Source: Periplaneta americana
Taxonomy: Eukaryota; Arthropoda; Insecta; Blattodea; Blattidae
Length of the DNA: 64,000 nucleotides
Direction: 5' to 3'
NCBI RefSeq assembly: GCF_040183065.1
Contig: NC_091120.1
Location: 23,120,708-23,184,707 of the forward strand
Shown: piece after piece, positions 33,171 to 34,629 of the stretch
How positions within the stretch are numbered: position 1 is the stretch's first letter
Layout of the letters: each line of letters starts with the position of its first letter
Translations under genes and position numbers: made by a program
The notes under the pieces: generated by a model
Told to the model about the DNA's origin: nothing
Seen by the model: only the letters and a program-made list of their open reading frames with translations
Database searches by the model: none

Positions 33171-33514
33171 CATCCATAATTAGGGCTCCCAACCATACAG
33201 GATTTGGCAGGATTGACCGGGCATTGCATCTATTTTTCAGAGGAATTTTTTACTTCACTGGGATGGAAAAAATCCCGGACTTAATAATAATTTCCGATTA
33301 GTAACAGTTTTTGATGTACAAATCTGGCTTTCAGGTAGTAGCTCCCTGTAAAGCAGGTTTCAATAATACATTCGTTACTGGAGGTACGTTAACAGAAAGC
33401 CACAATTTAAAGTCACACAGTATTTGTGTGTACTCACATTTGAATTCTGGCATCTTGTCAGCTCATGTGAGTTGTGTGGATATAAAAGGAAAAATTGTGA
33501 CAGTGTCGTGTATA

Positions 33515-33591
33515 GTTCCTGGGGTAGCTCAGTCGGTAGAGCATTCGTGCGCTAAGCGAAGGGTCCCGGGATAGATACCCGGCCCCGGAAC
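33515..33591 (+). repeat. tRNA-like block, array unit 1
   Basis: 'gttcctggggtagctcagtc' begins a cloverleaf-like 77-nt block with box A (tagctcagtcggtagagc) and a T-arm 'cccgggatagatacccgg'. The anticodon-arm stem is 'ttcgt/gcgaa'. The base before the would-be anticodon is C rather than the usual T, so it is unlikely to be a translated tRNA. Confidence 0.75.
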
Positions 33592-33808
33592 AATTTTTTC
33601 CTTGAAATTATTCAAACCTGCTTTACAGGGAGCTACTACCTGAAAGCCAGATTTGTATAATACATTCATTACTGGAGGTACGTTAGCAGAAAGCCACAAT
33701 TTAAAGTCACACAGTATTTGTGTGCACTCACATTTGAGTTCTGGCGTCTTGTCAGCTCATGTGAGTTGTGTGGATATAAAAGGAAAAATTGTGACGGTGT
33801 CGTGTATA

Positions 33809-33885
33809 GTTCCTGGGGTAGCTCAGTCGGTAGAACGTTCGCGCGCTAAGCGAAGGGTCCCGGGATAGATATCCGGCCCCGGAAC
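33809..33885 (+). repeat. tRNA-like block, array unit 2
   Basis: Same as unit 1 with a perfect 5-bp anticodon stem (ttcgc/gcgaa). The D-arm is changed (tagaacg) and the T-arm is weakened (gatagatatcc). Confidence 0.75.
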
Positions 33886-34102
33886 AATTTTTTCCTTGAA
33901 ATTATTCAAACCTGCTTTACAGGGAGCTACTACCTGAAAGCCAGATTTGTATAATACATTCATTACTGGAGGTACGTTAGCAGAAAGCCACAATTTAAAG
34001 TCATACAGTATTTGTGTTCACTCACATTTGAGTTCTGGCGTCTTGTCAGCTCATGTGAGTTGTGTGGATATAAAAGGAAAAATTGTGACGGTGTCGTGTA
34101 TA

Positions 34103-34179
34103 GTTCCTGGGGTAGCTCAGTCGGTAGAGCATTCGCACGCTAAGCGAAGGGTCCCGGGATCGATACCCAGCCCCGGAAC
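34103..34179 (+). repeat. tRNA-like block, array unit 3
   Basis: Box B-like 'gggatcgataccc' is closest to consensus among the three. Anticodon-position triplet GCT by alignment, loop 'acgctaa'. Confidence 0.75.
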
Positions 34180-34629
34180 AATATTTCCTTGAAATTATTC
34201 AGTTTTGATGTAGACAGAGAGGTGTCTGATTCAAGTGACTCTCTTCTTTTTGGCAAAACTTCAAAATATCTTTTAAATTGGTATAATTTTTAATTGTCAA
34301 TTACCTTTTTTTTAAATTTGTATTTTGTCTTTGAAAACTTTACCCACAGGAAGTGACCTAGAAATCTTGCTTCATAGTCTTCAGCTCAGTATTAATGTAG
34401 ATAAGTTGCATAAAGATATATGTTACATTCTTAAAATTTCACTAGATACTTTCAATGGAGATGATATACAAAAAAAAAAATACTTTTTTTTTTTTTTAAG
34501 TATCAGAATGTAGGAATCTTTTAAAAGTAGTTTCTTTTGCTTTATCAGAACCTGTTTTCAATGCTTAACACCTAATGTGAGAAGGTTTTTAGTTTTAGTT
34601 TATAAACACTAATAAGTGCTGGAGCCTGG

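What the first reader, a model, noticed from the sequence alone, without database searches (positions are those of the whole stretch)
33317..34199. Head-to-tail tRNA-like units with target duplications (family TL)
Three 294-bp units, each with a tRNA-like block near its downstream end, form one insertion flanked by a ~13-bp duplication. Other copies have one unit (23426-23716, 14-bp duplication), 1.6 units (43717-44185, 10-bp) and a truncated unit (59338-59498, 12-bp). Ordinary SINEs carry the tRNA part at the 5' end and insert as monomers. Here it is downstream and multimers insert as a block, with 5' truncation in two copies. This suggests that a multimeric RNA or cDNA is integrated by LINE machinery, perhaps from a circular or rolling template (inference).
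Basis: partly seen in the sequence, partly recalled or inferred. Interest (0 to 1): 0.8.

Follow-up and report, generated by a model that had tools for sequence, protein, structure and literature searches.

The report
tRNA-bearing repeats inserted Penelope-style
These short tRNA-carrying repeats sit in the genome as multi-unit, often mirror-image blocks whose two ends follow the signature of Penelope-like retroelements rather than of the LINEs that move ordinary SINEs, so they may be a parasite of Penelope-like elements.

Summary
In detail: three ~294-bp units with tRNA-like blocks form one insertion (33318-34201) with a target duplication; the other window copies are real.

In 63 parsed copies, 41 insertions are head-to-head: two arms whose outer 3' ends fall at fixed unit positions A and B, 41 bp apart. 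38 of 41 pair one A with one B; none is A/A or B/B. Duplications of about 13 bp flank 39 of 41 (0.6% of flank-swapped controls). Five insertions have paralogous empty sites.

Two RT starts 30-40 nt apart, use of both target strands, and inverted and tandem copies are published features of Penelope-like elements (PLEs). Two PLE families here show the same two ends; three two-armed PLE-1 insertions are also A+B. A hammerhead core precedes the end site in 29 of 39 GIY-YIG loci; TL has none, and a conserved tRNA-like fold stands near that place.

Best reading: a non-autonomous tRNA-bearing family moved in trans by PLE machinery from multi-unit RNA. LINE machinery is unlikely; a circular template is unproven. 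No PLE with a matching tail was found.

The parts
33309..33318 (.). left target-site duplication TTTTGATGTA
33318..33367 (-). inverted arm: unit positions 245-294 (3' tail), outer end = site B
   Evidence: 98% identity, minus
33363..33656 (+). unit 1 of the plus arm
33657..33950 (+). unit 2 of the plus arm (reference for unit coordinates)
33951..34201 (+). unit 3, ending at site A (..TGAAATTATTCA)
33518..33590 (+). tRNA-like fold of unit 1
   Evidence: Rfam tRNA 45.8 bits
33812..33884 (+). tRNA-like fold of unit 2
   Evidence: Rfam tRNA 33.2 bits
34106..34178 (+). tRNA-like fold of unit 3
   Evidence: Rfam tRNA 45.3 bits; ARAGORN
34203..34212 (.). right target-site duplication TTTTGATGTA
23412..23425 (.). 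target duplication TGTTCCAAATGTTG of the 23.4-kb copy
23423..23716 (-). TL copy of one unit in all: arm ending at A (23423-23674) plus inverted tail arm ending at B (B called by eye)
23717..23730 (.). second copy of TGTTCCAAATGTTG
43716..44185 (-). TL2-subfamily copy, 1.68 units, single arm ending at A, TSD 43707-43716 / 44186-44195; empty site in L084
59338..59499 (+). 5'-truncated third-subfamily copy, single arm ending at B, TSD 59326-59337 / 59499-59510

Best explanation
TL is a short non-coding retroelement family with a tRNA-like domain that is copied into new sites by Penelope-like element (PLE) machinery acting in trans. Shown by sequence: units of 285-294 bp; insertions mostly flanked by ~13-bp duplications; in two thirds of the parsed copies two arms in head-to-head orientation; outer 3' ends at one of two fixed sites, A or B, 41 bp apart, in two-armed copies almost always one of each; arms from under 0.2 to over 4 units; inner arm ends scattered; empty sites. 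Inferred: a PLE RT/GIY-YIG enzyme binds TL RNA, cuts both target strands with a ~13-nt stagger, and each free 3' end primes reverse transcription at one of the two internal start sites of the RNA; the two cDNAs run 5'-ward along multi-unit RNA and are joined, giving the inverted block. Inferred also: the tRNA-like fold, on an 11-bp stem near the place where PLEs here carry a hammerhead core, serves RNA processing or recognition in its stead. TL is not filed as a member of any sequenced PLE family, since no shared terminal sequence was found; the claim is that it works like one.
For: Two fixed ends: 38 of 41 two-armed copies A+B, 0 A/A, 0 B/B, 3 B+other; in the TL2 set, whose query held no inverted segment, 6 of 7. 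Duplication in 39 of 41 two-armed copies, 0.6% in controls. Empty sites for L014, L030, L031, L063 and window 43717. Co-resident PLE-1 (RVT_1 + GIY-YIG in L075): of the 13 arm ends read, 8 at A and 5 at B, 45 bp apart; three two-armed PLE-1 insertions with both ends read (L071, L082, L076/L077 = one locus) are all A+B with 11-12-bp duplications. PLE-3: A in L092, L101, L107, B in L090, L091, L093, L100, L105, L106, 39-41 bp apart. Published: a PLE protein cleaves and extends both strands, RT starts at two adjacent internal sites, the stretch between them being the 30-40-bp genomic 'tail' (PMC11167929); Penelope copies with inverted pLTR, 31-bp tail on one side and 9-bp TSD, and pLTRs sufficient to move a foreign gene in trans (PMC3846280). 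tRNA-like fold and outer stem kept: 96.4% of cells paired, 4 pairs changed on both sides.
Against: No PLE fetched shares TL's A-tail-B sequence (no match below E 0.1 in 39 GIY-YIG loci, leaving out a separate TL insertion in L105), so the autonomous partner is not identified. TL lacks the hammerhead core. 3 two-armed TL copies have one end elsewhere, and a fourth inverted PLE-1 copy, L081, has a minus arm that ends at neither A nor B. PLE-2 showed one end only. 12 of 59 TL copies have no duplication scoring 9: 2 two-armed (L032, L038) and 10 single-armed, of which L053 and L055 show one by eye and L049 is masked on one side. No RNA or protein data.
Confidence: 0.77

Rival explanations
1. Ordinary tRNA SINE moved by a LINE, with twin priming making the inverted 5' segments.
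For: Variable-length duplications, 5' truncation, an inverted 5' part and short overlaps at the inversion junction occur in LINE twin priming (recalled). Here 28 of 40 junctions overlap by 0 bp or more, median 2; no chance control was run and two large overlaps come from the self-complementary stem.
Against: Twin priming does not predict that the second primer lands at one fixed site 41 bp from the first in 38 of 41 copies. No poly(A) or simple-repeat tail at A or B. Either site serves as the only 3' end of single-arm copies: A in 7, B in 13 of 22, two cut by the fetched edge. The tRNA is at the 3' side with a T5-6 run right after it. LINE 3' ends of this genome were not compared.
Confidence: 0.08
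2. Retrozyme-like template: a monomer RNA circle copied by rolling reverse transcription into multimers. This rival concerns the template and is compatible with a PLE mover.
For: ~300-bp units in monomers to multimers; 5 of 59 copies total 0.99-1.02 units, as if one circle had been copied once; neighbouring units of one arm agree at a subfamily site (46 of 46 TL2, 20 of 21 first set); the retrozyme authors name PLEs as a strong candidate mover.
Against: No hammerhead core in the TL consensus on either strand even with one mismatch per motif, no Rfam ribozyme at E up to 10. Partial sharing of private alleles within an arm and different subfamily types in the two arms of L031, L036, L044 need heterogeneous or several templates. 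Near-1.0-unit copies may be over-sampled because the first query held the inverted tail.
Confidence: 0.2
3. Satellite DNA that expands locally by unequal exchange; insertions are incidental.
For: A long TL2 array at C20 (L068, more than nine units in 2.7 kb, no end seen); partial and alternating allele sharing between units (L057, L058, L059).
Against: Dispersed copies on contigs C1-C17 with duplications and empty sites; inverted arms with fixed ends are not made by unequal exchange.
Confidence: 0.05

Closest known systems
Penelope-like elements (Penelope/Poseidon type, GIY-YIG)
   Same: Two adjacent 3' ends (39-45 bp apart here), both target strands, head-to-head arms, tandem and partial-tandem units, 5' truncation, short duplication
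   Different: TL has no ORF of a PLE, no hammerhead core, carries a tRNA-like fold; its tail sequence matches none of the PLE 3' ends fetched
Metazoan (non-LTR) retrozymes
   Same: Non-coding ~300-bp units from few to many copies, PLE mobilisation suggested (PMC7229834, passages)
   Different: Contain a type I hammerhead and make circular RNA; TL lacks the first, the second is untested
tRNA SINEs (SINE2), e.g. Blattella Sbg1-9
   Same: Short, tRNA-like part, target duplications
   Different: SINE heads are 5' and SINEs rely on LINEs (PMC10886601, passages); the Sbg tails are poly(A) or short tandem repeats (PMC9191728, passages); TL has the tRNA-like fold ~23 nt before a fixed 3' end, inverted arms and no such tail. 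Talua of termites was known to me only by name and one passage
TRIMp3 (Cassandra, Helenus, Ajax)
   Same: Small-RNA-gene sequence fused to a non-autonomous element of a class other than LINE-borne SINEs (PMC10886601, passages)
   Different: Those depend on LTR retrotransposons, with LTRs, PBS and PPT; Ajax has 5-bp duplications

Membership tests
PLE-mobilised (non-autonomous PLE) | Two alternative 3' ends 30-45 bp apart (tail) | tested here: met
   A and B, 41 bp apart, in both subfamilies
PLE-mobilised (non-autonomous PLE) | Head-to-head inverted arms with short duplication | tested here: met
   41 two-armed copies, 39 with duplication
PLE-mobilised (non-autonomous PLE) | Same end pattern in PLEs of the same genome | tested here: met
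   two ends in PLE-1 and PLE-3, A+B pairing in three PLE-1 insertions; L081 is an exception, PLE-2 showed one end
PLE-mobilised (non-autonomous PLE) | Terminal sequence shared with an autonomous partner | tested here: not met
   no match below E 0.1 in 39 GIY-YIG loci, not all of which reach a recognisable 3' end; other PLE families of the genome not sampled
PLE-mobilised (non-autonomous PLE) | Hammerhead ribozyme before the RT start | tested here: not met
   absent in TL; core pattern in 29 of 39 GIY-YIG loci, 3 of 39 antisense
PLE-mobilised (non-autonomous PLE) | Copied by a PLE enzyme | not testable with these tools
   needs biochemistry
Retrozyme | Type I hammerhead | tested here: not met
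Retrozyme | Circular RNA | not testable with these tools
   no RNA data
SINE2/tRNA | tRNA-derived head at the 5' end | tested here: not met
   tRNA-like fold spans consensus 156-229, A is at ~252
SINE2/tRNA | 3' tail of simple repeats or poly(A) | tested here: not met
   target joins directly at A or B
SINE2/tRNA | 3' tail of LINE origin | not tested
   LINE 3' ends of this genome were not collected
SINE2/tRNA | Pol III transcription of the whole unit | not testable with these tools
   a T5-6 run follows the tRNA at once, so a Pol III transcript from the tRNA would end there (inference)

The most novel reading that the evidence does not exclude
A third way to be a SINE: after LINE-borne SINEs and LTR-borne TRIMp3, a tRNA-bearing element borne by Penelope-like machinery, in which a tRNA-like fold cut by RNase P/Z (or recognised as such) has taken the place of the hammerhead ribozyme in making the template RNA; and a pairing rule, one RT start site per target strand, for two-armed PLE-type insertions.
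Probability: 0.27. Interest if true: 0.82.

Novelty: new variant of a known kind. Interest (0 to 1): 0.62.

Why it matters
How PLEs insert is poorly known. A young, short family gives many readable insertions: here the two RT start sites known from in vitro work appear as a pair, one at each end, and the two arms can come from different templates. If PLE machinery is the mover, PLEs, like LINEs and LTR elements, support tRNA-bearing parasites, and a tRNA-like fold can stand where PLEs have a ribozyme core.

Tried and rejected
LINE twin priming, single monomer circle and satellite origin: see rivals. Hammerhead in TL: none. Search for a PLE sharing TL's tail in 39 GIY-YIG loci: none; a 15-bp match of TL2 unit 236-250 to PLE-1 at 2263 (E 1.6) lies about 680 bp before the PLE end and is taken as chance. 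L105 matches proved to be a separate TL insertion beside a PLE-3 fragment. Rfam listed one hammerhead in 13 PLE loci, below its cut-off (L096, 22.6 bits against 52), so the core was read by pattern; L069 and L072 among the 39 loci were not shown to be PLEs. Target-base preference near the ends: AT-rich, T at -3 of the A primer 58%, no clear motif. Random sampling for copy number was not possible; candidate numbers of the searches are not copy numbers. The search with the 23.4-kb copy did not complete. Dropped before counts: 4 copies cut by the fetched edge (L057, L059, L060, L068) from the duplication count; L048 repeats the window copy; L001-L008 repeat other loci; the left part of L043, lost by the identity and gap filters, was put back; the B end of the 23.4-kb copy (position 282) was called by eye; in PLE-1, L070 and the related L083 and L099 were not counted for ends.

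Full report
1. Observation. The array at 33363-34201 has period 294 and 2.9 copies. blastn of the first unit finds the other window copies at 23423-23674 (minus, 82%), 43716-44156 (minus, two pieces, 78 and 82%) and 59339-59499 (83%), and a 50-bp minus match at 33318-33367 to unit positions 245-294. So the finding's insertion starts with the unit's 3' tail turned round, followed by three units ending at position ~252. The tRNA-like blocks score 33-46 bits against Rfam tRNA in this insertion and 47-58 bits in the 43.7- and 59.4-kb copies.

2. The genome. The window lies in an unnamed 3.23-Gb assembly. It was searched with three TL queries, each scoring only the best 40 candidates: the finding's first 304 bp (3147 first-look candidates), the 43.7-kb copy (496) and the 59.3-kb copy (1188). 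The second and third queries find relatives of up to 99-100% and 96-99% identity; units of the first set agree with their consensus at 97% of positions on average. So at least three subfamilies look recent. I fetched 39 loci of the first set and 20 of the second. One third-subfamily locus, L108, shows minus-then-plus arms as well, its ends outside the fetched piece.

3. Anatomy. Of 63 parsed copies (39 + 20 + 4 in the window), 41 have two arms facing away from each other (minus then plus), so both outer ends are 3' ends. These ends fall at unit position ~252/244 (A..GAAATTATTCA; call window +-9) or ~293/285 (B..GATTTG; +-6). Pairing: 38 A+B, 0 A+A, 0 B+B; L038, L041 and L062 pair B with another position. 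By set: 30 of 32 first-set copies, 6 of 7 TL2 copies, both two-armed window copies. The first query contained an inverted tail and may favour such copies; the TL2 query did not. The A arm is longer in 26 of 38 (p = 0.034). Of the other 22, 7 end at A, 13 at B, and 2 are cut; L053 and L055 carry a short second arm by eye.

4. Target duplications. 59 copies have both flanks readable. A duplication scoring at least 9 (up to two mismatches) is found in 47 of 59: 39 of 41 two-armed and 8 of 18 others; flank-swapped controls 0.6% of 1500. Length mode 13 bp, range 10-18, plus 22 in an ATA microsatellite (L028). Joined flanks of 45 copies were searched in the sequence held; for five they match an uninterrupted paralogue with the duplication once: L014 (in L012), L030 (in L063 and L039), L031 (in L034, with four extra bases at the site), L063 and the 43.7-kb copy (in L084 and around window 14802-14966).

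5. PLEs in the same genome. GIY-YIG (PF01541) gives 108 matches from 150 scored candidates; counting by eye, ten pairs lie within about 10 kb of each other and all ten are minus-then-plus. L075 reads RVT_1 and GIY-YIG in one frame. PLE-1 arm ends stop either after ..AATTTCTAACA (8) or 45 bp later after ..GAATTGCAAAAT (5). Three two-armed PLE-1 insertions have both ends read, all A+B, with duplications GTATTATGCTT (L071), TTGAACCTCCT (L082) and TTCAAATAATAC (L076/L077, one locus). Against the rule, the inverted arm of L081 ends at neither site, beside another repeat. PLE-3 copies stop at A (L092, L101, L107) or 39-41 bp later (L090, L091, L093, L100, L105, L106). PLE-2 copies (L084, L085, L087, L089) all stop at one place. 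The published PLE of Anolis cleaves and extends both strands and starts at two adjacent internal sites, the stretch between being the genomic tail; its authors saw no difference in start site between the strands (PMC11167929: abstract and passages). Penelope copies of Adineta have an inverted pLTR, a 31-bp tail on one of them and a 9-bp duplication, and pLTRs sufficed to move a foreign gene (PMC3846280: passages). TL behaves the same way.

6. What stands before A. 29 of 39 GIY-YIG loci have a hammerhead core on the coding strand and 3 on the other; its start lies 111-130 nt before the A or end site in the 21 loci measured. TL has no such core. Its tRNA-like fold spans consensus positions 156-229, so it starts about 97 and ends about 23 nt before A. 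In a 13-copy alignment the cloverleaf and an 11-bp stem around it form standard pairs in 96.4% of cells (93.4% in shuffles); 4 pairs are changed on both sides (three in the anticodon stem, one in the outer stem); covariation 0.139 against 0.086 in shuffles, 0 of 500 reaching it, and 0.035-0.056 when slid. Against: the number of doubly changed pairs is reached by 190 of 500 shuffles, further pair types by 495 of 500; the sequences are related, and the structure was drawn on one of them. A T5-6 run follows the tRNA, so a Pol III transcript from it would be only the tRNA (inference); unit-long RNA needs another start.

7. Template. Neighbouring units in one arm agree at one subfamily site: TL2 site 154, 46 of 46; first set site 61, 20 of 21. 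Opposite arms agree in 3 of 3 and 12 of 15; chance 0.50 and 0.57. L031, L036 and L044 have arms of different type at that site, so two templates are likely there. Private non-CpG alleles carried by two or more but not all units of an insertion number 7 in the first set (L015, L043, L045, L047, the finding's copy) and 15 in TL2 (L057, L058, L059, L061, L068); in L061 the split is between the arms. Private doubletons within insertions, those shared by both of two units included, are 11 per 99 and 17 per 114 unit pairs against 33 per 4557 and 7 per 2587 between insertions. In L057, L058 and L059 some alternate between units. A single monomer circle does not explain this; heterogeneous multi-unit RNA or later unequal exchange can. 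Against that, five copies measure 0.99-1.02 units in all, as one circle copied once would; sampling may favour them.

8. Literature. Eight searches of the open-access library listed no paper whose title or abstract start names a tRNA-bearing or SINE-like element moved by PLEs; for some searches only the top of a longer list was shown. Passages were read of PMC11167929, PMC3846280, PMC7229834, PMC9191728, PMC10886601 and PMC5753468. Subscription journals, Repbase entries and preprints were not searched. That PLEs could move short non-coding tandem elements is published as a suggestion for retrozymes (PMC7229834).

9. Verdict. Shown: anatomy, pairing of ends, duplications, empty sites, PLEs with the same pattern in the same genome, a conserved tRNA-like fold. 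Inferred: PLE enzyme in trans, multi-unit RNA, role of the tRNA-like fold. Missing: the partner PLE and any RNA or enzyme data.

Noticed in passing
L068 = G000 C20:1106000-1108700 and further places on C20 0.99-1.27 Mb and C11 97.45-97.50 Mb: A long TL2 tandem array (L068), and clusters of TL2 matches nearby and on C11; possible source of multi-unit RNA
   Followed up: partly
window 43717-44185 and L063: Two structurally different TL2 insertions sit at the same position of two copies of one host repeat (GGAAATTTATCC), hinting at target preference
   Followed up: partly
L070-L107: At least four PLE families, with a hammerhead-like core before the 3' end in 29 of 39 GIY-YIG loci; PLE-1 copies up to 98-99% alike
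   Followed up: partly
window 46091-48922 (+): 943-codon open frame with RVT_1 and a weak endonuclease match: a LINE-like element
   Followed up: no
window 56522-57034 (+): Exon-like frame matching Pfam Glyco_hydro_15, probably phosphorylase kinase regulatory subunit (name recalled)
   Followed up: no
window 44914-45247: 166-bp unit duplicated in tandem at 98%, near the 43.7-kb TL copy
   Followed up: no
L009, L011, window 33318-33367, window 23670-23716; nearly in L014: The same junction, inverted tail joined to unit start with a 5-bp overlap (ATAAT by eye), recurs in four insertions and nearly in a fifth; the first query may favour it
   Followed up: partly
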